Source: Opitutia bacterium
Lineage (GTDB): Bacteria > Verrucomicrobiota > Verrucomicrobiia > Opitutales > Opitutaceae
Reading direction: 5' to 3'
Length of the DNA stretch: 64,000 nucleotides
Assembly: GCA_016187925.1 (NCBI GenBank)
Contig: JACPIS010000009.1
Coordinates: 186,001 to 250,000 of the forward strand
Shown here: piece by piece, positions 6,804-44,572 of the stretch
Numbering within the stretch: the stretch's first letter is position 1
Layout of the letters: every line of letters begins with the position of its first letter
Notes under the pieces: generated by a model
Told to the model about the DNA's origin: nothing
Database searches by the model: none
Seen by the model: the letters and a program-made list of their open reading frames with translations, nothing else
Translations under genes and position numbers: made by a program

Positions 6804-7064
6804 TTAAGGCGCGTAGGTGATGGTGCGCGCGCCTGCGACACCGAGGATCGTGATCGTCTGACCCTGGGTGTAACCCGTGGGATAGGTTTCACCAGCGACC
6901 GTGTTGACGGCCTTCACGTAGTTCGTGGCGCCAACCAAGTTCGCGGAGATAACGGAGGAGACGCCGTTCTCCAGAAAATATTGGTCAGACGCTGCGGACA
7001 GCTGGCGCGCGTTGTTCAACACGGCCTTGTCCTGCGATGACTGGCGGACCTTCTGGAACGCCAT
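6804..7064 (-). pseudogene. Type IV pilin C-terminal cassette 1 (no N-terminal helix)
   Basis: The frame encodes 86 residues, starting MAFQKVRQSSQDKAVLNNAR and ending in GVAGARTITYAP. This is the globular part of a small type IV pilin. The prepilin leader and the hydrophobic alpha-1 helix (G/F-T-L-V-E pattern) are absent. The codon just before the ATG is TGA, and nothing upstream in any minus-strand frame encodes a pilin helix. Homology to the second copy starts exactly at the AFQKVR codons, the point just after the conserved IP in intact pilins. The block ends with its own terminator. It may be a silent cassette or simply a decayed duplicate; as written it cannot make an assembly-competent pilin. 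Confidence 0.75.
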
Positions 7065-7215: not shown

Positions 7216-7473
7216 TTAAGGCGCGTAGGTGATGGTACGCGCACCCGCGACACCGAGAATTGTGACCGTTTCACCTTGAGTATAACCTGCGGGATAGGTT
7301 TCACCAGCGACCGTGTTGACGGCCTTCACGTAATTCGTGGCGCCAACCAAGTTCGCGGAGATAACGGAGGAGACGCCGTTCTCCAGAAAATATTGGTCAG
7401 ACGCTGCGGACAGCTGGCGCGCGTTGTTCAACACGGCCTTGTCCTGCGATGACTGGCGGACCTTCTGGAACGC
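7216..7473 (-). pseudogene. Type IV pilin C-terminal cassette 2
   Basis: A second copy aligns without gaps to 6804-7061 at an offset of 412 bases. From the AFQKVR codons through GETYP the two copies are almost identical at DNA level. The last 28 or so codons differ at about ten bases, changing TGYTQGQTITI to AGYTQGETVTI. The codon before the first pilin codon is TAG, and there is no start in place; the first in-frame ATG (7434) falls inside the pilin sequence. Leader peptide and membrane helix are missing, so this is a fragment or donor cassette, not a working gene. Confidence 0.75.
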
Positions 7474-7642
7474 CTACAATTCTGTACGCGTGTATGCGCT
7501 GGGCTGAACAAAACTCTATCAACCAAAGGAGGCAAGAGACTATTTGTCAGCAGAAAGTTAAACCTAATACACACGCCTCTCTACCAGGCTCTTGATTCAC
7601 GCTCCAAACGCGTGCGCCGGGCATTCAATCCCTCCGCCCGCC

Positions 7643-22000: not shown

Positions 22001-22395
22001 CGTTCCCTGTCGGCCACGGCGAATTGGTCCTCGTGGCCGACGACGAGGCCACCATCCGCGAAATCACGCGACTCGTGCTGGAGGAGCACGGCTTCGCCCC
22101 GCTGCTCGCCGAGAACGGCAAGGAGGCGTTGGAGCTGTTTCACGCCCACCGCGAGCGGATCAAGCTCGTCATCCTCGACCGCATGATGCCCGGGATGAGC
22201 GGCGAAGAGGTCGCCCGGAAAATCCACCAGCTCGCGCCCCAGTTGCCGATCTTCCTGTCCACCGGCCTGCTCATGGAAGGCAACGAGCCCGCGAAGGAAG
22301 AAGCGCTCAAGGCCGTCGGCGTCACCGCCATCCTGCACAAGCCCTACACCGAGGCCGTGCTGCTGAAGGCCCTGCGCCAGCACCTGCGCGTTTGA
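19060..22395 (+). CDS. Hybrid sensor histidine kinase/response regulator
   Basis: A 1111-residue membrane sensor. Eight or so hydrophobic helices fill residues 25-290. They are followed by a PAS domain (310-430), a GAF-like domain (about 440-600), a second PAS/PAC (about 610-725), a HisKA dimerisation domain with His750 in SGIAHDLNNVLAP, an HATPase_c domain (NARDAMPNGG, DTGTGIPPENLPHIFEPFFTT, GLGLSTVHGI) and a receiver domain with Asp1040 in VILDRMMPGMSG. The ligand is unknown. It has no response-regulator partner next door, so output may go through the fused receiver and an unlinked phosphotransfer protein. The next gene starts about 110 bases later. Confidence 0.93.
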   Translation: MTTDVQTTPWSHHEGPAPAAGRWFRQIAAVAGIIVALIGLGTLVLQLTTLSAVGSAPAASINMKTNTAVGLALAGGVLFLLACCRQRRRVRVVAQIGAVIVALLGLLTLGEHLFGWHLGIDELLDRELPGALAPFGPNRMVPATALCFLLIGSALLLTQLRSAAANLPAIAALALAYTTAMGYLYGSASFEGIAVYVQMAASTGIAFLLLGLGTLALRPDRGLVGFLTGGTADGKLALRLLLAILAFLPMLGGVLLRGYQEGQYSVEFGAALFVTVGGLIVGGLVLWNSRAFVRLEEARQLATHQTAELAAIVEFSADAIIGKDRDGRITSWNNGATRLFGYTRDEMVGQLVDRLIPADRSDEEARIQELFEQGVPVTDYVTRRLARDGRALDVSITLSAIKNASGAVIGTSKIVRDVTSHKAVEGKVRRLTRLYAALSACNKAIVRCSDEKKLFPEICRAAVTFGGMKMAWIGLIDESSRQVTPVASQGEGAEYLRDIHVSIDANDPFGLSPTGIAIREDRPVWCQDFQHDPCTEPWHDSSVKYGWGSSAALPLRCNDAVIGAFTLYSGEPQAFDDDIRNLLGEMTADIRFALENFAHEKKRQQAEADLHLQSAALSATINSVVITDPQGNIEWVNPAFTRITGYQAAEVIGQNPRLLKSGQQSDAYYANLWQTITSGRSWSGEFINVRKDGGLYTEEVTITPVRDQTRAIAHFVAVKQDVTEKKSLERQLFQTQRLEGIGLLASGIAHDLNNVLAPIALSIELLRLQFPGSGKRLDLIEESCRRGSDIIRQVLTFARGVEGERGALQVGRLVKEMSRLITETFPRNIEVVYHLAAGDDQVRGDPTQIHQVLLNLAVNARDAMPNGGHLTLLVERKILDEFAASQIPGARPGEFVMLVVRDTGTGIPPENLPHIFEPFFTTKPRGQGTGLGLSTVHGIVRSHQGFVHVRSELGVGTEFQVYLPALPPTELTEARARTATPFPVGHGELVLVADDEATIREITRLVLEEHGFAPLLAENGKEALELFHAHRERIKLVILDRMMPGMSGEEVARKIHQLAPQLPIFLSTGLLMEGNEPAKEEALKAVGVTAILHKPYTEAVLLKALRQHLRV

Positions 22396-22505
22396 GCGGC
22401 CGCTTGACCGCGGGCCAATTGTGCCGGTGCGCGCACCGGGGCGCTGATTGGGTGCGGGAAAAATTCCTTTTGTCGTCAGGGCATTCCCGGTTACCCGTTT
22501 TGCCC

Positions 22506-24326
22506 ATGCGCTCCCACGCCATCCCCTGTCTTGCCCTGTTCTCGTTTATCGCCGCGCAGACCCTCTGCGCGACCGTGACTGCGCCGGCCGACCTCCTGCC
22601 ACCCGCCCCCGCCTGGCACGGCGCCAGCGAGGCGCTCGTCGCCAAGGCCGACAATCCGTGGATCACCCCCGCGGAAAAAATGCAGCTGCTCGACTCGCCC
22701 AACTACGCCGACACCATCGCCTGGCTGCGCCAGCTGGCCGACGCCTCGCCGCTGATCGACCTGCAGGAATTCGGCCGCACGCCCCAGGGCCGGCCGCTCT
22801 ACGTCGTCGTCGCGACCAAGGAAAAATTTCCCACCCCCCCGGCCCTCCGCACCAGCGGCAAGCCCACCCTCCTCGCCCAGGGCGGCATCCACTCCGGCGA
22901 GATCGACGGCAAGGACGCCGGCCTGATGCTCCTCCGCGACATCGCGTTCGGCGGCAAGGACGCGCTGCTCGACCACGCCAACTTCCTTTTCGTGCCCGTC
23001 TTCAACGCCGACGGCCACGAGCGCAGCTCCGAGTGGAACCGCCCCAACCAGCGCGGCCCCGTGCACCAGGGCTGGCGCACCACCGCGCAGAACCTGAACC
23101 TCAACCGCGACTACGTGAAGGCCGACTCGCCCGAGATGCGCGCCATGCTACGCCTCATCCAGACCTGGGCGCCCTCGCTCTACCTCGACCTGCACGTCAC
23201 CGACGGCATCGATTACCAATACGACATCACCTACGGGTACAACGGCTGGAACGGCTTCACCTCGTGGTCGCCGCAGGGCAGCACGTGGCTCGAAAAATAT
23301 TTCCGCCCGGCCGTCGATGGCGCGTTGCAGCAGTCCGGTCACATCCCCGGTCCGTTGATCATGGCGATCAACAATCGCGATCTCACCGCCGGCATCGTCG
23401 GCGGCAACGGCGACCCGCGCTTCTCCACCGGCTACGGCGATCTCCGCCATCTGCCGTCCGTCCTCCTCGAAAACCATTCGCTCAAGCCCTACCCGCAGCG
23501 CGTGCTCGGCACCTACATTTTCATCGAGTCGGCACTGGCCGCCGTCGGCGCGCATGCGGCCGAGCTCACCGCCGCCATCGCAGCCGACAATACCGCCCGC
23601 CCCGCCGAAATCCCCGCCAACTGGGGCGACGGCGGCGGCCCGGTCACCAAGATGGATTTCCTCGGCATCGCCTACGAAGAGTTCGTCTCGCCCGCCTCCG
23701 GCGTGAAGGAGGTCCGCTGGCTCGGCACGCCCAAGCTCTACAAGGATCTCCCCATCATCGGCGACAAGCCCGGCGTCATCCTGCAGCGCCCGAAGGCCTA
23801 CTACGTGCCCGCCACCGAGTCCGACGTCATCGCCGTGCTCGCCGCGCATGGCGTGCGGATGGAGACCCTCGCGGAGCCGCGCACGGTCGAGGCGGAGTTT
23901 TACCGCCTCACCGACGTCAAGACCGCCACCGAACCGTTCGAGGGCCACTACACCCTGACCGCCGACGTGAAGCCCGAGCGCCGCACCGAGACCTTCCCCG
24001 CCGGCTCCGTCCGCATCACCACCGACCAGCCGCTCGGCGAACTCGCCGTCGTCATGCTCGAGCCGCAGAGCCGCGACTCGCTCCTCGCGTGGGGCTTCTT
24101 CAACGAAGTCCTCCAGCGCACCGAGTACATCGAGGGCTACGTCGTCGCGCCCATGGCGGAAAAAATGCTCGCCGACAGCCCGCCACTGAAAGCCGAGTTC
24201 GAGGCCAAGCTCGCCGCCGACGAGAAATTCGCGAAAGACCCGACCGCCCGGCTGCAATGGTTCTACGCCCGCTCAAAGTTCTACGACGAGCGCTACCTCC
24301 TCTACCCCGTCGGCCTCGAGCGTTGA
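22506..24326 (+). CDS. Secreted M14 family zinc carboxypeptidase
   Basis: A 606-residue protein with a signal peptide (residues 1-21). The M14 zinc site is visible as IHSGEIDGKDAG (His129, Glu132) and a later His in LYLDLHVTDG. GRTPQGRPLY at the domain start and LNLNRDYVKAD also fit M14 peptidases. The C-terminal 250 residues form an extra domain. The last ten codons (YLLYPVGLER) and the stop lie in a 35-base sequence that is repeated exactly at 29084-29118, marking the edge of a possible inserted block. A frame beginning at 22392 is read-through from the kinase gene. Confidence 0.88.
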   Translation: MRSHAIPCLALFSFIAAQTLCATVTAPADLLPPAPAWHGASEALVAKADNPWITPAEKMQLLDSPNYADTIAWLRQLADASPLIDLQEFGRTPQGRPLYVVVATKEKFPTPPALRTSGKPTLLAQGGIHSGEIDGKDAGLMLLRDIAFGGKDALLDHANFLFVPVFNADGHERSSEWNRPNQRGPVHQGWRTTAQNLNLNRDYVKADSPEMRAMLRLIQTWAPSLYLDLHVTDGIDYQYDITYGYNGWNGFTSWSPQGSTWLEKYFRPAVDGALQQSGHIPGPLIMAINNRDLTAGIVGGNGDPRFSTGYGDLRHLPSVLLENHSLKPYPQRVLGTYIFIESALAAVGAHAAELTAAIAADNTARPAEIPANWGDGGGPVTKMDFLGIAYEEFVSPASGVKEVRWLGTPKLYKDLPIIGDKPGVILQRPKAYYVPATESDVIAVLAAHGVRMETLAEPRTVEAEFYRLTDVKTATEPFEGHYTLTADVKPERRTETFPAGSVRITTDQPLGELAVVMLEPQSRDSLLAWGFFNEVLQRTEYIEGYVVAPMAEKMLADSPPLKAEFEAKLAADEKFAKDPTARLQWFYARSKFYDERYLLYPVGLER

Positions 24327-24328
24327 GC
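24294..24328. repeat. Left 35-bp direct repeat (3' end of peptidase gene)
   Basis: This 35-base stretch, from the TAC codon of the last YLL of the peptidase to two bases past its TGA, recurs without mismatch at 29084-29118 in the same orientation. Flanks differ on both sides. It looks like a target duplication or attachment site at a gene's 3' end. Confidence 0.9.
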
Positions 24329-24329
24329 T

Positions 24330-25424
24330 TCAGCGCGGCGCGAGTCCGGCGGCCACCGCCGCCGCTTCAGGCGCCGTGCCACTGGCCATCTGCACCCGCG
24401 CCGCAATGACCGCGTCGAGCGGGGGTTCGAGCAATGCGTGGAGTTTCTCCAACTCCCCGGCGGCCAGACCCTCGATCGTGCGATAGCGCCCGTCGACCCG
24501 GCGGATTTCGAGCCCGACCAGCGCCGGGGTGCCGGCGGCACCCCAGCCAAAGGTACTCGCGAACGTTTGCGGTCGCACAAACTGAATGTCGGTCCAGGCA
24601 ATGACCCGAAGCGAATCCGGCGACGATCCCAGCGCCAGACCGTCGCCGCGCAATTCCACGATGCGGTTGCCGCGAGCCCGCCGCCACCTGCTTCCGGCGG
24701 CGAGCGCGCCCAGCCCGCACATGATCGCGATCACGCCCGACCATTCGTCCGACAACCCGGCCAGCGGCCCGCCCCACCCGGCCAAGCCGGCGCCAGCCAA
24801 AGCCAGCGGCGCCACCCAGAACGGCATGACGGAGAACTGCAGCCGCAGCGGCTGCTGCCAGCGCTGGCGCTGGAGGTCGGGCAGGTTCGCCTCGGCGCGC
24901 TTCGGCCCGCGAAAAAGCTCGTCCACGTAGTCAAGGATGTGGCGCTGGATGCGCGCCACGTTCGGACTGAACACATCCCAGCCGAATGCGACCACCCCTC
25001 CCGGTGTCTGGATGCGCAGCTCCTGCTCCAACGGGACGCCGTTCACGCGGTAAGTAAACGCCTCCGTCTGGCCGAAGTCCGCCCAGGGAATCCCGTGCTC
25101 GCGCACAAGATAATACGGCAGGAAGAAACCCGCGAATCCCGTCCCGCGCCAGCAGCGGAGCCTGATGCCTTCGGGGTCCAAGGCCAGGGAAGGCGGCCGA
25201 AGCAAGGCATGGACATTGCGGCAGCCGGCGAGAGCGAAGCCGAGCGCCACCGCACCAAACCCAGCCCCGAATCCGAGCTGGACGCCTTGCTCCTGCATCC
25301 GCTCGTCCAGAAAGCCGAATTGCACGGCCAGAAAGCCCAGGAATGCCGCCAGACTGAAGTGCAACAGACCCTTGAGCACATGGTTGATGACTGCGGGGCG
25401 AATGCTGCTTACGGGGGAGTTCAT
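24330..25424 (-). CDS. Membrane protein with PH-like segment, unknown function
   Basis: A protein of 364 residues from the ATG at 25424. It has two hydrophobic segments near residues 15-65, a soluble part with GIPWADFGQTEAFTYRVNG, a second membrane pair around 195-240, and another beta-rich part with IAWTDIQFVRP. The W-x-DI pattern after a short strand resembles bacterial PH-like domains of the YcxB type, present twice; this is a visual guess. It is the last gene of the four-gene block and ends one base past the left direct repeat. A longer start at 25460 would overlap the upstream gene and seems less likely. Confidence 0.6.
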   Translation of the reverse strand: MNSPVSSIRPAVINHVLKGLLHFSLAAFLGFLAVQFGFLDERMQEQGVQLGFGAGFGAVALGFALAGCRNVHALLRPPSLALDPEGIRLRCWRGTGFAGFFLPYYLVREHGIPWADFGQTEAFTYRVNGVPLEQELRIQTPGGVVAFGWDVFSPNVARIQRHILDYVDELFRGPKRAEANLPDLQRQRWQQPLRLQFSVMPFWVAPLALAGAGLAGWGGPLAGLSDEWSGVIAIMCGLGALAAGSRWRRARGNRIVELRGDGLALGSSPDSLRVIAWTDIQFVRPQTFASTFGWGAAGTPALVGLEIRRVDGRYRTIEGLAAGELEKLHALLEPPLDAVIAARVQMASGTAPEAAAVAAGLAPR

Positions 25425-25437
25425 AAGGTCGGGTGGA

Positions 25438-26460
25438 TTAATCCGGCAGCAGCCTGGCATAGCTCGCTTTGTCGGCCGTGCGCTGGTCGACGAGATTCTT
25501 TATCCGAAGGACAACGATTTTTTGCGCGGCGAGCTGCTGCTCAGTCACATCGTTCAGGTGGTCGATGCCTTCGTTCAGGATGTAGATCGTCGCGCCGGCC
25601 TCGCCTACGTCGTATATCCCGCTCGCCACGGCGCTGAGTTCCTTCAGGTACGGATGATCGATGAGCATTGATGCCAGGGTGAGCACCGCTTCCTGCCGGC
25701 CGGCGACGGTCTCCGTGTCCGTCTCCGCCAGCTTGAACAGCTTCTCCTCGTATTTCAGGCAGGCGATTGCCTCCTTGGCCCCTTGCACGAGCACGGCGCG
25801 GGGCGCCTTTTCCGAAAAGGAGCGCAGCCACATCTGCAGGTCGTGGTCCTTCAATCCCGCCTGGCTGAGCTTCTCGGCCAGTCGGTTCACGTCCTTCCGT
25901 TTCATGGTGCGGATTTTCTCCAGGAACCGCTCCTGCATCGCCGCCTCGGCCTTGGCGGTCACCAGCGCCTGCACCCGCGAGGTGAGCTGGGCGATCATGT
26001 GGTCGCGCGCCTGGCCGGCCAGTCCGCCGTAGCGCACGAGTTCCGCCTCGCGCTGCTTGAAACCCCAGCCGCGCAGCTGCTCATTCATTTCGGCGATCTG
26101 CCGGCTCGCGTCCTGGATTTTCACCGCCAGGCCCAGCGCCTGAGTGTAAGTGTCCGCCTGGTCGACGATGCCGTCGGCCTCGCCTTGCAGGGTCGCCTTG
26201 GTTGCCACCGCCTCGCCGGCACGCGGGCTGTCTTCGGTGACGCCTTCAAATTCCTTCAGGAACGCCGCGTATTTTTCGGCGAACCGCGTTTGCTGCCGCT
26301 GGATGCGCGTGCGCAGCTTGCCCAGCTTCACCCGGTCAGCGGCTTGCAGTGTCGCCGGCACCGGCGGCAACGTCCCGCCCACGGGCTCTTCCGCCCGCAA
26401 CCCGAGGGCGGCAAACAGGAGGAAGAAAACCAGTCCGAGTCGACATAGATGGGATTTCAT
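25438..26460 (-). CDS. Secreted coiled-coil protein of unknown function
   Basis: From the ATG at 26460 the product has 340 residues with a signal peptide (MKSHLCRLGLVFFLLFAALG...). The remainder is almost entirely helical and charged (KLRTRIQRQQTRFAEKYAAF, AEKLSQAGLKDHDLQMWLRS), suggesting coiled coils and no enzyme motif. It is not recognised. It lies four bases after the previous gene's stop and 13 before the next start, so it is part of one operon. A structural or scaffolding role in the periplasm together with the other secreted coiled-coil protein is a guess. Confidence 0.65.
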   Translation of the reverse strand: MKSHLCRLGLVFFLLFAALGLRAEEPVGGTLPPVPATLQAADRVKLGKLRTRIQRQQTRFAEKYAAFLKEFEGVTEDSPRAGEAVATKATLQGEADGIVDQADTYTQALGLAVKIQDASRQIAEMNEQLRGWGFKQREAELVRYGGLAGQARDHMIAQLTSRVQALVTAKAEAAMQERFLEKIRTMKRKDVNRLAEKLSQAGLKDHDLQMWLRSFSEKAPRAVLVQGAKEAIACLKYEEKLFKLAETDTETVAGRQEAVLTLASMLIDHPYLKELSAVASGIYDVGEAGATIYILNEGIDHLNDVTEQQLAAQKIVVLRIKNLVDQRTADKASYARLLPD

Positions 26461-26464
26461 AAAA

Positions 26465-27865
26465 TCATGGAGACGGCGTTCCCGACGGCGGCACGACAAT
26501 GTCAGTCGTGCTCCGGGACTTGGGTCGGATGGTCAGATCCACGGCCTTGGAGCCGGCCGACAGGCGCTTGGTCCCCTCGGTGAAATTGATCTGCGCCTGC
26601 GTCGCGGAAATCTGATTCACCACCCGGGTCCAGTCCTGGGCGCTGGCCGCCGGGCCCTGTTGCGCCAGCTGCTTCCGCTCGGCGTAGAGTTTTTCCAGCG
26701 CATCGAACTGTCGGGTTTGCTCCTGCTCGGCCTGTTGCAACCGCGGGCTGGCCTTGATCTCGGCGGGCGCGCCGGGCTGCTGCGTGGGGCTGGGCGCCAG
26801 CACGAGCGGCACCGCCGCCGGTTCCGGGGCGGGCATATCGACCGGGACTCCCTCCGGTGCAGCCACCGCGGGCAGATCCACGGGCGGCAGGCCTTGCTTG
26901 GTGTCGAACTGGTAGCCGCTCACCATGCTAGTGGTGACCGGCCCCACGCCCAAGCGGTCGTCCCGGGTATCGGCCGCCGTGTTGGACGTGGCGGTGACGA
27001 TCCGCAATTGGTCGAGGGCGCGGGGCGTCACACCGGCGCCGATCGGGGCAGGCCGGGCGAGCGTGCCCGCCTGACCGGCGGGCACCGAGTTGCCACCGAA
27101 CGGCGTGGTGACGACCGTCGCCTCCGGCTGGTTTTCGATGTCCTGCAACCGGCCCGCCAACGGGTCTCTGATCGCGGCATAGAGCCCCGCCACCTCGCCG
27201 AACTCCGTCGCCAGCCGCCCGTGCTTCGCTCCGGTCTCGGACATTTCCTGCTGCACCTTGGCCACCGCCTCCACGGCCTGTTCGAACGCCTGTTGCGTCT
27301 CGGCCATGATCCGGTCGCGTTCTGCGCGCAGCGTCTCCTGCCGGCTCGCCAGCCTGGCCGCTTCATTGTCGTAGGCCGCGTGAGCCGCCGCCTGCTCCTT
27401 GGTGAAGACATGCGGCTTGGCGTTGTGGACCTTGATTTCCCGATCGAGCGACCTGAGCCGGCTGACGACCGATTCGAGCCGCTGCTCCCCCAGCAACCGC
27501 ACCCGTTCCACCTCGCGCATCTTCGGCTCCACCTCGAAATTCTTCAGATAGTGCAGCCGGCTTTCCGTCGCGTCGATCTGTTCGCCCAGATCCTGCATAT
27601 TTTCCACGACCCGCTTCAACCGCTCGATCTGGTCCTGCAACGCGGCCCAGATGTCCTCGCCTCCGGCCTGGCGGCGGACACGGTATTTGGTCGGCAGCAT
27701 CTTGCCGCTCAGAAAACGCACGTCGTCCTTGAAGCGCTGCACGCTGTCCGCGCCCTGGCCGCCCGGCATCGGCGCCGGCAGCAGGCCGAGCAGCAGAGCC
27801 AGCGTGGCGCCCGACGAGAACCGGCCGCACCGGCGGAACGGAAAATTGTGCGCCGGATTTTTCAT
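26465..27865 (-). CDS. Secreted coiled-coil protein with Pro/Ala-rich tail
   Basis: A 466-residue product with a signal-like hydrophobic stretch at residues 20-36 (ATLALLLGLLPAPMPGGQ). A long helical region runs to about residue 240 (heptad-like KRVVENMQDLGEQIDATESR, ERDRIMAETQQAFEQAVEAV). A Pro/Ala/Val-rich linker and a final short coiled coil (QLAQQGPAASAQDWTRVVNQ) follow. No family is recognised. Its ATG overlaps the stop of the upstream Sel1-repeat gene by four bases, showing coupling. Composition resembles its partner at 25438, and the two may interact. Confidence 0.65.
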   Translation of the reverse strand: MKNPAHNFPFRRCGRFSSGATLALLLGLLPAPMPGGQGADSVQRFKDDVRFLSGKMLPTKYRVRRQAGGEDIWAALQDQIERLKRVVENMQDLGEQIDATESRLHYLKNFEVEPKMREVERVRLLGEQRLESVVSRLRSLDREIKVHNAKPHVFTKEQAAAHAAYDNEAARLASRQETLRAERDRIMAETQQAFEQAVEAVAKVQQEMSETGAKHGRLATEFGEVAGLYAAIRDPLAGRLQDIENQPEATVVTTPFGGNSVPAGQAGTLARPAPIGAGVTPRALDQLRIVTATSNTAADTRDDRLGVGPVTTSMVSGYQFDTKQGLPPVDLPAVAAPEGVPVDMPAPEPAAVPLVLAPSPTQQPGAPAEIKASPRLQQAEQEQTRQFDALEKLYAERKQLAQQGPAASAQDWTRVVNQISATQAQINFTEGTKRLSAGSKAVDLTIRPKSRSTTDIVVPPSGTPSP

Positions 27866-28977
27866 GTGGCGGCGGGTTCCCCTTCCAATTGTCGGTAGAC
27901 CTCGTCCGCCACGCGCTCGAAGTCGGCTTCATCCAACGTCGCCCACACGTGCTCGATCATGCCTTGGATCGGCTCGACGCCCAGCCGGCGGCCGCGCTCG
28001 AGATGTACCAGGGCGTTGATGATGTTCTCCTCCCCCTCTCCGCGACGTTGCAGATAGGCCGAGCCCAGCAGGTGCTCCCCCCAGCCATCGTGGAGGGTCG
28101 CGGCGCGTTGCCAGAATTCCATCGCCCGTGCTGCGTCGCCGTCGTCGTTCTGGGCCATCAGCCCCAGCATGGTCAGAGCGGGGGCGTAATCGTGGTCCGC
28201 CGCGGCCTGCAGATGCTGCCGGGCGTCACCCACATCGGAAGTCACCCCCAAACCGTAGTACTCCAGTACCGCGAGATCGTAGTGGGCGCGCATCACGCCG
28301 TTCCTGGACGCACGGCCCAACCAATAGGCTGCTTTCTCAAAATTCTGTCGCGGGCCATCGCCTTCGCGGTAACGCCACGCCAGCACCAGTTGCGCGTCGC
28401 CCGCGCCGAGGTACGCGCGCCACTGCTCGCGCAGGCGCGTGCCGCCGGAACCGCCGAACAGGTAGCTGGCCGCGCCACCCAGCAGGACAATGAGCAGCAA
28501 GGCCCCACCCGCCGCCACCGGCCAGCGGCGGCGTGTCTTGGGCGGTAGAGCGGGTAACGGCGGCGGATCCACCGGCGAAGACCGGGGTGCAGGCGTCGCC
28601 TCGGCCCGCCTTTCCTCTGTCTCGGCCGGAGTCCCGCCGGGACGTGCGGGCGAATCCGTCTCCGGCCCGGTCTTCGCTTTTACCGGCCCGTCACCGCTCA
28701 TGACCAAGGCCGTGGCGAGCACGGTCGGGATTATCACCCACCACGCCGCCCAATCCCGCGGCCACCACACAAAGAAAACAAAACCCGCGCCCAACATCGT
28801 CGCGCCATACGTCACCGCCGCCGCCCACGCCAGCCCGCGCCGGCGGGCCACCAGCCCCCAGATATCCTTCCATTGCGAGAACCAACCGAAGGTGAGCAGC
28901 AGGAAGCCGCCGGCGTTTTTGTTGGCGGGCGAAGGCTCCATATCCTTGAAGGTGTCGAAGCACAGGATCGCAAACAC
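27862..28977 (-). CDS. Membrane-anchored Sel1/TPR repeat protein, start uncertain
   Basis: The frame from a GTG at 28977 gives 371 residues. It contains hydrophobic segments at about 45-92, a Pro-rich linker, another membrane segment near 152-172, and four or five Sel1-like repeats in the C-terminal half (AAYWLGRASRNGVMRAHYDL, ARQHLQAAADHDYAPALTML, EFWQRAATLHDGWGEHLLGS). Sel1 repeats mediate protein contacts. The frame stays open upstream and encodes another hydrophobic stretch (KALLLFFERLLLCLGPAVFA), but there the likely initiating codon reads ACG, so the original start may be mutated or cut off near the right direct repeat. It is the first gene of the four-gene block. Confidence 0.6.
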   Translation of the reverse strand: MFAILCFDTFKDMEPSPANKNAGGFLLLTFGWFSQWKDIWGLVARRRGLAWAAAVTYGATMLGAGFVFFVWWPRDWAAWWVIIPTVLATALVMSGDGPVKAKTGPETDSPARPGGTPAETEERRAEATPAPRSSPVDPPPLPALPPKTRRRWPVAAGGALLLIVLLGGAASYLFGGSGGTRLREQWRAYLGAGDAQLVLAWRYREGDGPRQNFEKAAYWLGRASRNGVMRAHYDLAVLEYYGLGVTSDVGDARQHLQAAADHDYAPALTMLGLMAQNDDGDAARAMEFWQRAATLHDGWGEHLLGSAYLQRRGEGEENIINALVHLERGRRLGVEPIQGMIEHVWATLDEADFERVADEVYRQLEGEPAAT

Positions 28978-29083
28978 CGCCGGGCCAAGGCAGAGCAGCA
29001 GGCGTTCGAAAAATAAGAGGAGCGCTTTCGTGACGCAGGGGGCTGGCCCTTGCTATCACCCCTCGCCTCACCCGCAATATCAA

Positions 29084-29118
29084 TACCTCCTCTACCCCGT
29101 CGGCCTCGAGCGTTGAGC
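29084..29118. repeat. Right 35-bp direct repeat
   Basis: An exact copy of 24294-24328. It would encode YLLYPVGLER plus stop, but here no peptidase sequence precedes it. The 4.8 kb between the repeats contain exactly four genes, all on the minus strand. Confidence 0.9.
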
Positions 29119-29219: not shown

Positions 29220-30953
29220 CTACGCTTGGCGGCTGACCGCGAGCCGGTCCTTGCCTCCGTACGAGGCGGGAGCTTCCGGGAGTTCGACGATGAAGGTCGC
29301 GCCGCGGCCGAGCTCCGTCTCGCAGCGGATGCGGCCGCCCATGCCCTCGACCAGTTGGTGCACGATGGAGAGCCCGAGGCCGACGGAGGTTTCCCCCGCC
29401 GTGGGGCGCGCGCCGAGGCATCCGTATTTGGTGAAGAGCCGGGGCACATCCGCGGGCGAGATGCCCGGACCTTCGTCGCGCACGAGCAGGCGCACGAGCG
29501 GTTCGCCCGGCTGCAGCCCGATCCAGACCGTGCCGCCGATGGGGGAATACTTGAGCGCGTTGGAGAGGAGATTGTCGACCACCTGGCGCAGCGCGCGCGC
29601 ATCGGCGCGCATCCGGCAGGGGCGGACCGGCGGGGCGATGTTCACCAGGATGCGCTTGCGGGCGGCGGCAAACCGGTTTTCGCGCACCATCTCGTCCACC
29701 ACCGCGCCGGCGTCGACCGGTTCGAGGTGATACACGCGGCTGCCGTTCTCCAGCATCTGCACGTCGAGCAGGTCGCCGATCAACTGCACCATGTGCCGCG
29801 TGAGCACGGCCACCTCGCCGAGCACGCGGCGGCGCTCGGCCCGGTCATCGGTGTCGACGGCCTCGAGCGAGAGCATGACGCCGGTGAGCGGATTGCGCAG
29901 GTCGTGCGCGGCCATGTCGAGCAGGCGGGTCTTCTCGCCGTTCAGCTCTTCCAGCCGGTCGCGGGCGGCCCGAAGCTCGGCCTCGACGCGGCGGCGCTCG
30001 GTCAGTTCGCGGCGCAACCGGTGGTTGTGCCAGTAGAAAGCAGCCACGACGAGCAGCACCACACCGGTGGCGATGACGAGCGCGCGCCAGACTTTGTCCC
30101 AGCGCACCACGTCGGCATAGTCGACGCGCACCCAGCGGTCGACGATGGCCTGCTTCTCCGCGTCGTCGAGCGAGGCGATCACGGCGTCGAGGATGGCGGC
30201 GAGCTCGGGCCAGTCGCGCCGCACGGCGAAATGCAACTCGAAGCGGTAGTCGGCGATACCCGCGATCTTCAGGTTCATCAGCCCGCGCGTCTTGATGATG
30301 TAGCTGGCGTTGACGAGATCGGTGAGCGCCACGTCGGCCTCGCCCGACGAGACGAGCCGGAGGGCCTGGTCGGTGTTGGCCGCCGGCACGAACCGCGCGC
30401 CGGGCTGGTCGTGGCGCAGTTTTTCTGTCACGGCATGATCGGGCACGACGGCGATGCGACGGCCACCGAGTTGCGAGAGCGTGGCGAGAAACGGCTCGTC
30501 GGCCCGCGTGATGATGCCGAACGACTGGTTCAGGTAGGACGTGGTGAAAATGAAGTCCCGCCCGCGGCTGGGCGTGGGTGCGACGCCGCTGAGCACGTCG
30601 ATCTCCCGCGCCTTGGCCTTGGCGAGGACCGTGCTCCAGTCGCCGGGCGCCACGTGTTGAAAGCTCAAGCCGGCGCGCCGCTCGACCAGCGCGGTCAGGT
30701 CCACATCGAGTCCCGTCAGCCGGCCCTGTGCGCCGCCGAAGCTGAACGGCGGCCAGTCCGGGTCACAAGCGATCCGGATCACCGGATGCTGCGTCAGCCA
30801 GCGGGTCTGCTCCGGCGTGAGCACCAGCAGGTTGGGCGGCGGGGCCGGCACCGGCTGCGACCGGACCGCGACCAGCAGCCCGCCCAGTCCGCCCAGGCAG
30901 AGCAGGCCGGCACGCCAGCCGAACGAAAACAGGGAAGATGACCGCACGGCCAT
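29220..30953 (-). CDS. Sensor histidine kinase with solute-binding (SBP_bac_3) sensor domain
   Basis: A 577-residue protein with an N-terminal signal or anchor (15-31). A periplasmic SBP family 3 domain spans about 45-280 (IRIACDPDWPPFSF, VDVLSGVAPTPSR-type, VALTDLVNASYII), then a membrane helix (288-308), HisKA with His350 in DMAAHDLRNPLTG, and HATPase_c (NLLSNALKYSP, DEGPGISPADVPRLF, GLGLSIVHQLV). The SBP domain suggests it senses an amino acid or similar small molecule directly. No receiver gene is adjacent. It is a close paralogue of the kinase at 47410-49092. Confidence 0.92.
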   Translation of the reverse strand: MAVRSSSLFSFGWRAGLLCLGGLGGLLVAVRSQPVPAPPPNLLVLTPEQTRWLTQHPVIRIACDPDWPPFSFGGAQGRLTGLDVDLTALVERRAGLSFQHVAPGDWSTVLAKAKAREIDVLSGVAPTPSRGRDFIFTTSYLNQSFGIITRADEPFLATLSQLGGRRIAVVPDHAVTEKLRHDQPGARFVPAANTDQALRLVSSGEADVALTDLVNASYIIKTRGLMNLKIAGIADYRFELHFAVRRDWPELAAILDAVIASLDDAEKQAIVDRWVRVDYADVVRWDKVWRALVIATGVVLLVVAAFYWHNHRLRRELTERRRVEAELRAARDRLEELNGEKTRLLDMAAHDLRNPLTGVMLSLEAVDTDDRAERRRVLGEVAVLTRHMVQLIGDLLDVQMLENGSRVYHLEPVDAGAVVDEMVRENRFAAARKRILVNIAPPVRPCRMRADARALRQVVDNLLSNALKYSPIGGTVWIGLQPGEPLVRLLVRDEGPGISPADVPRLFTKYGCLGARPTAGETSVGLGLSIVHQLVEGMGGRIRCETELGRGATFIVELPEAPASYGGKDRLAVSRQA

Positions 30954-31020: not shown

Positions 31021-31506
31021 CTATCGGCCCCCCGTCGCCAACCCCACCGCCGGCCGACGCTCTTCCCGCAGCAGGCCGGCCAGGATAAGCCCTTGCACCA
31101 GCGCTCCGGCCAGCAACAGCAGCAGCTCAAGACCGCACAGCGCCAGCGGCTCACCGATCAGCGTGTGGTAGATGAACCACTCCTGCGGCAGCCAATACAT
31201 CAGCCAGATCGCCAGCCCCCAGAAGAGGCCGCGGCCGCGCCACGTGCGGCCCGGCATGGCCGCCTGCAGCCGCACGAACAGCCACGCGAGCGGCACCGAC
31301 AGCGCCACGAGCCCGAGCACTGACACCGGCACGTTGCGCTGCGCGGCCAGCTCGATGAACCGCGGGCTTTGCCACGCCGGATTGAACAGCACCGCCTTGA
31401 CCGGCGGACTCGTGAACAACAGGCCGAGCAGCGCGTTGCCGCCCAAGCCGGCCAGCAGGCCGGCCCATGTGATCCGTACGGGAGAAACAGTCGTTTTTTC
31501 GTTCAT
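31021..31506 (-). CDS. Small polytopic membrane protein, unknown
   Basis: A 161-residue product with four hydrophobic segments (GLLAGLGGNALLGLLF; NVPVSVLGLVALSVPLAWLF; GLFWGLAIWLMYWLP; LELLLLLAGALVQGLILAGL). It is not recognised. It ends 67 bases upstream of the kinase gene and starts 34 bases after the sigma factor stop, all on one strand. It could be a membrane partner of that sigma factor, but it lacks the cytoplasmic N-terminal zinc motif of ZAS anti-sigma factors. Confidence 0.65.
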   Translation of the reverse strand: MNEKTTVSPVRITWAGLLAGLGGNALLGLLFTSPPVKAVLFNPAWQSPRFIELAAQRNVPVSVLGLVALSVPLAWLFVRLQAAMPGRTWRGRGLFWGLAIWLMYWLPQEWFIYHTLIGEPLALCGLELLLLLAGALVQGLILAGLLREERRPAVGLATGGR

Positions 31507-31540: not shown

Positions 31541-32386
31541 TCAGCCCCGCCGGCGCGCGACGGCCCGGTGCACCAGCCGCATGATGGCGTCCTGCAGATC
31601 GGCGCCGGGGCCCTGCAGGGGATCGACCTCCCGCACCAAGGCGGCGCGCAGCCGCAGGAGCCGTTCCTCGCCGCCCCGCGTCAGCGCGCGCTGCAAAGCC
31701 GCCACCCTCGCCTGCTCGCGCGACTGGTCGCCGTTGAAAAATCCGTTCAGCTCGCTGCACTGGTGGCAGGCCCCCGTCTTGCCCACCAGCGCGCACCGCT
31801 GCGCGAAAACGCGGTTCATGGTCGCACGGGCGGCGTGGAGCAGATGCTTCAGCCGCGCGAGCGACACGCCCATGACATCGGCCGCCTCGCGGTCCTTGAA
31901 ACCGTGGACTTCCACCAGCAGCAACGCCACGTGCTGCGCCAGCGGCAGCGTCTTCATCACGCAGGTGAAGCAGAAGCCGACATGCTCGCGCAATTCGTAG
32001 CGCCCGCGCGGCGACCCGGCCGCGACCTGGCGCAGCCCCTCCGGCGCGCCGGGCGTGGACTCCGCGAGGGCCCGCGCCTGGTCCTGCGCATCCTCCCGCC
32101 AGCGGCGGCGCGCCCGCCAGTGGTCGCGCGCGAGGTTGGTGGCGATCGCAAACAGCCACGTGCGGAACGCCGCCCGTCCATCGAACGCCTTGAGGCGCCG
32201 CTGCACGCGCAACCAGGTTTCCTGCGCCAGGTCGTCGGCATCGGCCCGGTGTGCGGTGAGCCGGTGCAGGTAGGCGCGCAGTGCGGCATCGTGCCGCGTC
32301 ACGAGCGCACCGAACGCGGTCCGCCCGCCGGCTCGTGCCCGGGCGAGGAGGCGTTTTTCGTCGGTCTCGTCCGAGGGCGGGGGCAT
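31541..32386 (-). CDS. ECF-like sigma-70 family factor with cysteine motifs
   Basis: From the ATG at 32386 the protein has 281 residues. Region 2 ([38 protein letters not shown]) and region 4 ([32 protein letters not shown]) are clear. Between and after them are CFTC and [13 protein letters not shown], a set of cysteines typical of ECF groups whose own sequence binds metal or senses redox state. A C-terminal extension of about 70 residues follows. AAGGA sits eight bases before this ATG, which favours it over upstream starts. It is divergent from asnS and may be cotranscribed with the small membrane protein downstream. Confidence 0.88.
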
Positions 32387-32510
32387 CGCGCGCATCCTTG
32401 CGGGCGCGCCCCCGGCGTCAACGCCGCAGCGCCCGGCGGCGGGTTTGGCGCGACGGCGTTTCCTGATTTGCGTCCGCCCGGGCAATCCGCTTCGTTCGCC
32501 GCCAAAAATC

Positions 32511-33911
<1,401 letters not shown>

Positions 33912-33938
33912 GCGACCCGCTGTCTTCGCATGTTTGCC

Positions 33939-34009
33939 GTAGGGCCTGACCTCGCGTCAGGCCTTTTGCGCCCGGCGACGGCTAGGCTCGACGCGAGGTC
34001 GAGCCCTAC
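33939..34009 (+). repeat. Family B palindromic element B1, acting as terminator
   Basis: A 71-base element that starts GTAGGGCCTGACCTCGCGTC and ends CGACGCGAGGTCGAGCCCTAC. Its first half is a hairpin (GGCCTGAC/GTCAGGCC) followed by TTTT, so on the plus strand it works as a Rho-independent terminator for asnS. Near-identical units occur at 35618 and 35776. Confidence 0.8.
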
Positions 34010-35462: not shown

Positions 35463-35617
35463 GCAAAAAATCGAAGACAGGCCCCTAATATCGCCCGGCC
35501 GGCGGCCCGCTTGACGAAATTCTTTGCGACAAAATGCTTCCGTGTTTCCCGTGCGGCTTCCACACGGCCGAAATCCGGTGGATTTGGCGCCGCCAGGCTG
35601 GTCGAGCCCTGCGAACC

Positions 35618-35689
35618 GTAGGGCCTGACCTCGCGTCAGGCCTTTTTTCTCATCACGGGGGGAAGGCTCGACACAAGGTCGAGCCCTAC
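35618..35689 (+). repeat. Family B palindromic element B2
   Basis: It starts GTAGGGCCTGACCTCGCGTC and ends AGGTCGAGCCCTAC, with a longer T-run (TTTTTT) after the first hairpin than in B1 or B3. The middle differs from B1, so the arms are conserved more than the centre. Confidence 0.8.
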
Positions 35690-35775
35690 GAGTCAGGCCG
35701 TGGCTTGCGTTCTGTCCGACGGCCGCGGCGGACCCGGCCACGGCGGAATTCTGAGCTGCGCGTCGTCCTTAAACC

Positions 35776-35846
35776 GTAGGGCCTGACCTCGCGTCAGGCC
35801 TTTTGCGCCGGGCGACAGCCAGGCTCGACGCAAGGTCGAGCCCTAC
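35776..35846 (+). repeat. Family B palindromic element B3
   Basis: A 71-base copy almost identical to B1 over its whole length, including the centre TTTTGCGCC-GGCGAC. It lies 30 bases past the end of the 35877 gene, between convergent transcripts and B2. Confidence 0.8.
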
Positions 35847-43912: not shown

Positions 43913-43930
43913 GAGTGAGTGCGGCGGCGT

Positions 43931-43961
43931 GCGTTGAGGCGCGAGCAAGCTCGCTGCCTAC
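43931..43961. repeat. RAYT-associated REP unit C1
   Basis: GCGTTGAGGCGCGAGCAAGC followed by TCGCTGCCTAC; the core GCGAGC-AA-GCTCGC is a perfect hairpin. An identical 31-base copy overlaps the stop codon of the transposase gene at 44542-44572. Confidence 0.85.
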
Positions 43962-44038: not shown

Positions 44039-44548
44039 ATGTCCCTGAGCCGCGGCCACGAAGCGCTCCGTCGACACCGGATTTCCCTGTCGGGCGCGAC
44101 TTACTTCCTGACGCTGTGCACGCAGGAGCGAAAACCGCGCCTCACTTGCGATCCCGTCGCCGGTGCCATTCGCACGGAGGTCGCAGACATTGAAACATCC
44201 GGCCATTGGACGCCGCGCGGCGCGGTCATCATGCCTGACCACTTCCATGTGCTCGTGACTCTCGGTCGAACCCTGCCGCTCGGCCAGGTTATCGCCCGCT
44301 TTAAGACGAAAACCCGCGCCGCCCTGGCTGGCGTTGGCGCGCGATGGCAGGACAACTACTACGAGCATCGGCTCAGGCCGGATGAGCCCGTCGAGAACGT
44401 TCTGCATTATTTGTACCTGAACCCCTATCGCAACAGGCTGCTGCCCGCGCACGAAGTCTATCCGCTGTTCTGGCTGGGAGCTGAAGAAGCCAACTGGTTC
44501 ACACCGCTGTTGGATGACGGGCGTCCATTTGCCGAGTGGCTGCGTTGA
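44039..44548 (+). CDS. REP-associated tyrosine transposase (RAYT, Y1 family)
   Basis: A 169-residue Y1 transposase-like protein. GATYFLTLCTQERKPRL is the family's N-terminal strand. GAVIMPDHFHVLVTLG carries the HuH metal-binding pair. WQDNYYEHRL holds the candidate catalytic Tyr, and VLHYLYLNPYRNRLL is the typical C-terminal YIxxNPxR motif. RAYTs act on hairpin REP sequences as single strands. Here REP pairs C1/C2 lie directly upstream, and C3 overlaps the stop codon, so gene and substrate form one unit. An upstream in-frame start at 43919 would run through the REPs and is rejected. Confidence 0.93.
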   Translation: MSLSRGHEALRRHRISLSGATYFLTLCTQERKPRLTCDPVAGAIRTEVADIETSGHWTPRGAVIMPDHFHVLVTLGRTLPLGQVIARFKTKTRAALAGVGARWQDNYYEHRLRPDEPVENVLHYLYLNPYRNRLLPAHEVYPLFWLGAEEANWFTPLLDDGRPFAEWLR

Positions 44549-44572
44549 GGCGCGAGCAAGCTCGCTGCCTAC
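44542..44572. repeat. RAYT-associated REP unit C3
   Basis: Identical to C1 over 31 bases and in the same orientation. The TGA of the transposase gene is inside it, so the gene's end and the repeat are fused. Confidence 0.85.

What the first reader, a model, noticed from the sequence alone, without database searches (positions are those of the whole stretch)
24294..29118. Four-gene block lying exactly between 35-bp direct repeats
The 3' end of the M14 peptidase gene (35 bases including the stop) is repeated without mismatch 4.8 kb away. Between the copies are four coupled minus-strand genes: a Sel1-repeat membrane protein, two secreted coiled-coil proteins and a PH-like membrane protein. Integration at a gene's 3' end that restores the end is typical of site-specific islands, but no integrase is present. 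The four genes look like parts of one envelope-associated assembly that I cannot match to a known system.
Basis: partly seen in the sequence, partly recalled or inferred. Interest (0 to 1): 0.82.

Follow-up and report, generated by a model that had tools for sequence, protein, structure and literature searches.

The report
Recombination scar in a variable locus
A perfect 35-base copy of one gene's tail beside a four-gene operon is real, but it looks like the scar of an ordinary mis-joining between two versions of a much-shuffled stretch of a bacterial chromosome, not the footprint of a self-moving genomic island.

Summary
A perfect 35-bp direct repeat (24294-24328, 29084-29118) is the M14 peptidase gene's last 33 bases plus GC, found only twice in the genome. 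Four tightly coupled minus-strand genes lie between the copies.

The island reading is not supported. Of 14 relatives with a close M14 or its remnant, 12 have asparaginyl-tRNA synthetase (AsnRS) downstream on the same contig, with 110 to 7,930 bp and differing contents between: a gene-turnover hotspot. The same four genes (67-75% identical) lie in this interval without the repeat in G009, and a lone g4 in another genus (G176). None of the six other g1-g3 cassettes has flanking repeats. No tyrosine recombinase was found on this contig.

In G009 and G176 the operon's upstream flank runs on into AsnRS. In the window it is cut at AATACC, where the M14-tail copy begins (TACC microhomology). Best reading: one unequal, illegitimate crossover joined an 'M14-operon' arrangement to an 'M14-HK2-...-AsnRS' arrangement. 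Block insertion with target duplication is the main rival; which side was the newcomer is unresolved.

The four genes are a composite of a rare three-gene cassette and g4; their function is unknown.

The parts
22392..24326 (+). M14 zinc carboxypeptidase gene, left flank of the hotspot; its last 33 bases are in copy 1
   Evidence: Pfam PF00246 2.6e-20; AsnRS downstream on the same contig in 11 relatives, plus G176 with only a 3' remnant
24294..24328 (+). 35-bp direct repeat, copy 1 (M14 3' end with stop, plus GC)
24330..25427 (-). g4, polytopic membrane protein; 'PH-like' not confirmed; stop codon 3 bp from the M14 stop
   Evidence: 13 of 252 Opitutaceae at E<=0.001, 8 of them at 94 bits or more; without g1-g3 beside AsnRS in G176 and G173; model pLDDT 35.6
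25438..26460 (-). g3, helical protein with an N-terminal hydrophobic (signal-like) segment
   Evidence: 72% identical in G009; mostly helical low-confidence model; hydropathy
26465..27865 (-). g2, long coiled-coil-like protein, probably exported (inferred)
   Evidence: 7 of 252 Opitutaceae genomes; alignment
27862..28977 (-). g1, membrane protein with Sel1 repeats
   Evidence: Pfam Sel1 2e-12; three hydrophobic segments
29074..29087 (+). operon upstream flank GCAATnnnAATRCC, shared with G009 and G176, cut here after AATACC (TACC = microhomology with the M14 end)
29084..29118 (+). 35-bp direct repeat, copy 2 (orphan M14 3' end)
29220..30953 (-). HK2, solute-binding-domain histidine kinase; a 62% identical gene lies between M14 and AsnRS in G006
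31021..31506 (-). small membrane protein, weak DUF6789 match (E 0.0021, under cut-off)
31541..32485 (-). sigma-factor-like ORF (start uncertain); sigma label from reading the sequence, no family search run
   Evidence: ORF list
32511..33911 (+). AsnRS, right flank of the hotspot
   Evidence: Pfam tRNA-synt_2 1.3e-63

Best explanation
The M14-AsnRS interval is an integrase-free gene-turnover hotspot in Opitutaceae. The four-gene operon is one of its alternative contents, as in G009; HK2 is another, as in G006. The 35-bp repeat is the scar of one unequal, illegitimate crossover between two versions of the interval: version 1, M14-g4-g3-g2-g1-upstream flank; version 2, M14-HK2-...-AsnRS. The left part of version 1 was joined at a TACC microhomology to version 2, starting inside M14's last 35 bases. 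This leaves M14's tail repeated between the two contents, and the repeat ends where the two versions begin to differ, 2 bases after the stop. Uptake of conspecific DNA with homologous pairing at one end and illegitimate joining at the other (homology-facilitated illegitimate recombination) would do this. Shown: hotspot, shared operon, cut flank, lone repeat. Inferred: the two versions in one species, and the route.
For: Of 14 relatives with a close M14 or its remnant, 12 have AsnRS downstream on the same contig, with intervals of 110 to 7,930 bp and differing contents; in four of the 12 no coding-like ORF of 80 codons lies there. The operon is in the same interval in G009 and g4 alone in G176, a different genus. 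HK2 (62%) lies between M14 and AsnRS in G006. The window holds both contents, with the orphan M14 tail exactly between. The operon's upstream flank matches G009 and G176 up to AATRCC, where those two continue AGYCC... into AsnRS and the window switches to the M14 tail; the junction shares TACC with the M14 end. No other g1-g3 cassette (0 of 6) has flanking repeats. The own genome has 3 tyrosine-recombinase hits, none on this contig. The window's M14 is not of its genus type: grouping with G001/G006/G007 is rejected, p-AU 0.00026, and with G009, p-AU 0.0064, which suggests exchange at the left flank. Precedents: hotspots lacking mobile elements with recombination at flanking core genes (PMC5635113, passages); homology-facilitated illegitimate recombination leaving displaced genes (PMC5361080, passages).
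Against: No conspecific genome was available, so neither proposed version has been seen in this species. The M14-g4 junction is also unusual: 3 bp between the stops, against 73 bp in G176, with pnt between in G009. A single block insertion with a 31-35 bp target duplication would explain both junctions at once. A 4-bp microhomology alone is weak, and G009 has TGCC, not TACC, there. In G006 a lipoprotein-like ORF separates M14 from HK2, so the exact M14-HK2 joint of version 2 is not seen in any relative. The AsnRS tree is no clean contrast: it puts the window with G172 and G005 (90/88, not starred), does not reject grouping with G001/G006/G007 (p-AU 0.143) or G153 (0.272), and rejects G009 (0.0158), so the predicted left/right difference in ancestry is only half-tested. 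The sequence after copy 2 is not significantly like the M14 downstream tail of G001/G006/G007 (DNA: 4683 of 5000 random window segments as good; protein: 333 of 5000).
Confidence: 0.55

Rival explanations
1. The four-gene block itself was inserted in one step into M14's 3' end of an M14-HK2-...-AsnRS chromosome, with a 31-35 bp staggered break filled in (target duplication). Captured chromosomal DNA, no dedicated enzyme.
For: Explains both unusual junctions and the 100% identity of the copies in one event. Without the block the window would read M14-HK2-...-AsnRS, much like G006, which has one more small ORF after M14. The block's third-position GC (0.80-0.86) is a little below that of six neighbours (0.87-0.95), weak evidence of other origin. 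The block's ends lie close to the ends of the homologous unit in G009 and G176.
Against: The block is already found in this very interval in G009, and g4 in G176, so a fresh capture landing in the same few kb would be a coincidence, unless helped by homology to the flanks.
Confidence: 0.25
2. Site-specific island whose integrase was lost or acts in trans, using the M14 3' end as attachment site.
For: An exact duplicated gene 3' end restoring the ORF is the classic signature (recalled). The own genome encodes one weaker-scoring tyrosine recombinase besides two strong hits (that the two strong ones are XerC/XerD is inferred, not tested).
Against: No integrase in the block and no PF00589 hit on the contig. 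No repeats at the 6 other cassettes. Same operon in the same interval without repeats in G009. Five other cassettes sit beside unrelated genes.
Confidence: 0.1
3. Local rearrangement: the operon moved within the chromosome from beside AsnRS to the M14 end, or M14's tail was copied by replication template switching.
For: The operon's upstream flank lies beside AsnRS in G009 and G176. A second orphan M14 3' end (28 codons) exists at this locus in G176.
Against: Needs excision plus reinsertion, or a coincidence of break points; HK2 and the sigma-like gene still need a separate explanation.
Confidence: 0.07
4. Assembly artefact.
For: Draft genome of 48 contigs; reads not available here.
Against: The 35-bp repeat is short for an assembler to stumble on (general knowledge), the contig is 365 kb, completeness is listed as 100%, and the operon and HK2 are each found in the same interval in a relative.
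Confidence: 0.03

Closest known systems
[quoted passage not shown] 2017, PMC5635113; passages seen)
   Same: Conserved flanking genes, changing contents, no integrase found; the window's M14 has a history unlike its genus.
   Different: Those hotspots are defined within species; here only different species and genera could be compared. The passages seen say nothing of a repeat scar.
Homology-facilitated illegitimate recombination leaving displaced remnants (Vibrio T6SS immunity arrays, PMC5361080; passages seen)
   Same: A new content joined in while the old one is kept; the junction has at most microhomology.
   Different: Here a gene tail is duplicated rather than an immunity gene retained; the process was not observed.
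Integrative islands targeting gene 3' ends (recalled)
   Same: Duplicated gene 3' end flanking a gene block.
   Different: No integrase found, and no repeat at any of the six other copies of the cassette.
Sel1-repeat / DUF805 membrane proteins
   Same: g1 has Sel1 repeats; g1 relatives in G006 and G189 pass Pfam's cut-offs for DUF805 and Sel1.
   Different: Window g1 has no DUF805 hit. g2 and g3 reach no Pfam cut-off, and the g2 profile finds no PDB sequence at E 0.1.

Membership tests
Site-specific genomic island at a gene 3' end | Integrase or recombinase carried by, or next to, the element | tested here: not met
   None of the four genes matches one; PF00589 hits lie on contigs C4, C44 and C40, not on C27. 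Serine recombinases and transposases were not searched for in the genome.
Site-specific genomic island at a gene 3' end | Exact direct repeats, one restoring the target gene's end | tested here: met
   35-bp repeat, 2 copies in the genome
Site-specific genomic island at a gene 3' end | The same ends at other insertions of the element | tested here: not met
   0 of 6 other cassettes have flanking repeats; best exact direct matches near their ends 8-15 bases
Site-specific genomic island at a gene 3' end | Empty site with one repeat copy in near relatives | tested here: inconclusive
   G001, G006 and G007 lack the block there but their M14 tails and downstream sequence differ; no conspecific was held
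Gene-turnover hotspot without mobile elements | Conserved flanking genes with changing contents | tested here: met
   12 of 14 relatives with a close M14 or its remnant have AsnRS downstream on the same contig, intervals 110-7,930 bp with different contents; the other two are G004 (split contigs) and G064 (no AsnRS in the stretch fetched)
Gene-turnover hotspot without mobile elements | Raised homologous recombination in the flanking core genes | tested here: inconclusive
   M14 tree conflicts with the genus label (p-AU 0.00026); AsnRS not decisive
Gene-turnover hotspot without mobile elements | Turnover among strains of one species | not testable with these tools
   one genome per species held
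Illegitimate (microhomology) joint | Short shared sequence at the breakpoint, judged against unbroken relatives | tested here: met
   AATACC in G176 and the window, AATGCC in G009; TACC shared with the M14 end
Transposon target duplication | Transposase and terminal inverted repeats | tested here: not met
   No transposase among the four genes; longest exact inverted match around the block's ends 10-12 bases

The most novel reading that the evidence does not exclude
The operon is an integrase-less cassette with defined ends (right end GCAATnnnAATRCC, left end just past the g4 stop), shared by G176, G009 and the window and moved in trans by a host recombinase into the M14-AsnRS junction, copying the M14 tail on entry; its envelope proteins would be its cargo.
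Probability: 0.07. Interest if true: 0.65.

Novelty: new member of a known kind. Interest (0 to 1): 0.3.

Why it matters
It shows how a textbook island signature, a duplicated gene tail around a gene block, can arise without any mobile element: two alternative contents of one hotspot joined in tandem. It also marks a hotspot between M14 and AsnRS in several Opitutaceae genera, and an uncharacterised, envelope-type three-gene cassette (Sel1 protein plus two probably exported proteins) whose g2 is found in 7 of 252 genomes of the family and which has been combined with g4. If moved in trans, it would be a new kind of cassette, but nothing here requires that.

Tried and rejected
Rejected: chance repeat. 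Dispersed repeat element. Shared 'tail' after copy 2 with the M14 C-terminal extensions of G001/G006/G007: by eye AAELSA resembled AAPLSA, but it was not significant. Flanking repeats at other cassettes (none). Defence-system membership: PADLOC gave only partial matches, g3 E 0.016 and g2 E 0.00071, over stretches of 51 and 72 residues. A cysteine-peptidase-like C-terminal part of g3 homologues in G189, G194 and G122 (invariant DCA and GAHE): best Peptidase_C70 E 0.039, under cut-off, in 1 of 3 members, and no meaningful PDB match, so it remains a lead.

Led nowhere: AlphaFold2 models of g4 and g3 from two-row alignments, pLDDT 35.6 and 47.8, so no fold search was run; PDB sequence searches for g2 and g4 (no hits); genome-contig scan, 1 locus, the G009 contig; paper searches for DUF805 with Sel1 and Opitutaceae with Sel1 repeat, 0 papers each; one for island, integrase, direct repeats, microhomology and illegitimate recombination, 1 paper, off the subject by its abstract.

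Dropped rows: M14 tree used 13 rows and left out G004 (gene split between frames), G176 (28-codon remnant) and the weak hits. The AsnRS tree used 15 of 16; G168 dropped because my extraction met an early stop. The AsnRS-upstream comparison missed G172 and G005 of 16. The interval table covers 12 relatives. G004 (locus on two contigs), G003 and G005 (no M14 found) and G064 (no AsnRS in the stretch fetched) are not in it.

Full report
WHAT IS THERE. The repeat is exact: 24294-24328 and 29084-29118, 35 bases, made of the last 33 bases of the M14 peptidase gene (stop included) plus GC. It occurs twice in the own genome at up to 3 mismatches. Chance gives about 3e-7 such pairs per 4 Mb. Of 218 coding-like ORF ends tested in the window and 18 relatives' stretches, only this one has a second copy within 6 mismatches in its own sequence. 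Between the copies lie four coupled minus-strand genes. g1 has Sel1 repeats and three hydrophobic segments. g2 is long and coiled-coil-like. g3 is helical with a signal-like start. g4 has hydrophobic segments and no family above cut-off. The stops of M14 and g4 are 3 bp apart and face each other.

THE NEIGHBOURHOOD IN RELATIVES. The genome shares its genus group with G009, which appears to be a Candidatus Didemnitutus MAG: the contig of G009 and the named record JAUXOH010000117.1 have the same length, and the same relative of g3 matches in both at 72%. Whole-genome searches found M14 in five of the other 12 same-genus genomes and AsnRS, at E<=1e-100, in seven of those 12. Over the family (252 genomes including the own), 13 other genomes have a close M14 (57-76% identity, G004's in two pieces) and G176 a remnant; the rest of the 33 matching genomes are distant M14 proteins. 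Of these 14, 12 have AsnRS downstream on the same contig and were laid out. G153, G160, G168 and G172: no coding-like ORF between, 110-269 bp. G001 and G007: a small lipoprotein-like ORF. G156: another ORF. G173: an acyltransferase-like ORF. G174: pnt transhydrogenase genes and a small lipoprotein-like ORF. G006: a lipoprotein-like ORF and HK2 (62% to the window's). G176: g4 alone (71%), with M14 reduced to its last 28 codons. G009: pnt genes and g4-g3-g2-g1. The window: g4-g3-g2-g1, orphan M14 tail, HK2, a small membrane protein and a sigma-like gene. Names such as lipoprotein-like, acyltransferase-like and pnt are read from the sequences, not from family searches. The other two of the 14: G004, with pnt next to AsnRS on one contig and M14 on another, its downstream sequence by eye like the pnt end seen in G009; and G064, with no AsnRS in the 11 kb fetched. 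This is a turnover hotspot between two conserved genes.

THE OPERON. G009's four genes are 67-75% identical to the window's, in the same order. At four-fold degenerate sites the two differ as much in the block (51.5-63.6% identity) as in M14 (54.3%), and more than in AsnRS (72.5%), so the blocks are old relatives, not a recent transfer from G009. The g2 family is in 7 of 252 Opitutaceae genomes and, in a sample of 387 genomes of the phylum, only in the window's own. Outside the window and G009 the cassette is g1-g2-g3 without g4 next to it, in five genomes (G006, G122, G123, G189, G194), with no M14 or AsnRS in the stretches of four of them and 400 kb from M14 in G006; G122's g1 is interrupted by an unread base and a frame change. 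In G006 and G189 g1 carries a DUF805 domain. g4 matches 13 of 252 genomes, five of them weakly; it lies beside AsnRS in G176 and, on AsnRS's far side, in G173. The four-gene block is therefore a composite: a sporadic three-gene cassette joined to g4, a gene also found near AsnRS without it.

THE JUNCTIONS. Upstream of g1 the window and G009 align through the promoter region as far as AATRCC. G176 has the same GCAATnnnAATACC upstream of its g4. In G009 and G176 the sequence continues AGYCC and on to AsnRS; in the window it changes to the M14 tail. TACC is shared by the operon flank and the M14 tail, so the M14-derived part proper is 31 to 35 bases. None of the other six g1-g3 cassettes shows flanking direct repeats. 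In the window the M14-g4 junction is also tight, 3 bp between stops, where G176 has 73 bp.

INTERPRETATION. The window holds two contents known singly from relatives, the operon (G009) and HK2 (G006), with a copy of the left flank's last bases exactly between them. An unequal crossover between two versions of the interval predicts this: the left flank's end is repeated at the joint, and the repeat ends where the versions diverge. Identity of the copies is expected if both versions came from one species. With 0 of 35 differences, divergence since the event is below about 8% (95% bound, own arithmetic). The window's M14 has a history unlike its genus: grouping with G001/G006/G007 is rejected (p-AU 0.00026), with G009 too (0.0064), and its nearest row is G153 from another genus (support 89/92, not starred). 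AsnRS is not decisive: nearest rows G172 and G005 (90/88, not starred), G001/G006/G007 not rejected (0.143), G009 rejected (0.0158). Homology-facilitated illegitimate recombination and mobile-element-free hotspots are documented (PMC5361080 and PMC5635113, passages only). Which side was the newcomer cannot be settled. A direct block insertion with a 31-35 bp target duplication is the main rival and explains the tight M14-g4 junction better.

AGAINST AN ISLAND. No integrase among the four genes and no PF00589 hit on the contig. The operon lies at the same locus in G009 without repeats. There are no flanking repeats at the other cassettes. What remains for it is the textbook look of the repeat.

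FUNCTION OF THE FOUR PROTEINS. Inference only: g1 as a membrane-anchored Sel1 scaffold, g2 and g3 as exported helical partners, g4 as a membrane accessory protein; an envelope-associated complex, confidence about 0.4. The g3 homologues of G189, G194 and G122 have a different C-terminal part with invariant Cys and His positions. A papain-like enzyme is a lead without statistical support. No PDB sequence relative was found for g2 or g4, and the two structure models were too poor to use.

Noticed in passing
L068 8132-8218 (G176): M14 is reduced to its last 28 codons, in frame and 79-81% identical to the window's M14, facing g4: a second orphan M14 3' end at the same locus.
   Followed up: partly
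window 32400-32510 and AsnRS upstream regions of L023, L068, L069, L101 and others: The sequence just upstream of AsnRS comes in several unlike types that cross genus lines: TTTCCTGATTTGC in the window and G173; ATTTCAGGCTTCTGCC in G009, G174 and G176; CGGTTTGCCAA or a close variant in seven others; 14 of 16 genomes read.
   Followed up: partly
window 33937-33967, 35616-35646, 35774-35804: Three copies of a 31-bp palindromic, REP-like sequence (CCTGACCTCGCGTCAGG).
   Followed up: no
window 43930-43961 and 44541-44572: A 32-bp direct repeat, with nearby inverted copies, around GCGAGCAAGCTCGC.
   Followed up: no
window 6879-7062 and 7291-7474: A 184-bp direct repeat (one mismatch) 412 bp apart, in a region of lower GC.
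   Followed up: no
L037 2163-3254, L038 5257-6342, L039 8187-9254: g3 homologues carry a C-terminal region with invariant DCAxFAL and GAHE that window g3 lacks; possible papain-like fold, not significant.
   Followed up: partly
L028 8892-10630 (G004): The M14 gene of G004 is split between two overlapping frames, either a frameshift or an assembly error.
   Followed up: no
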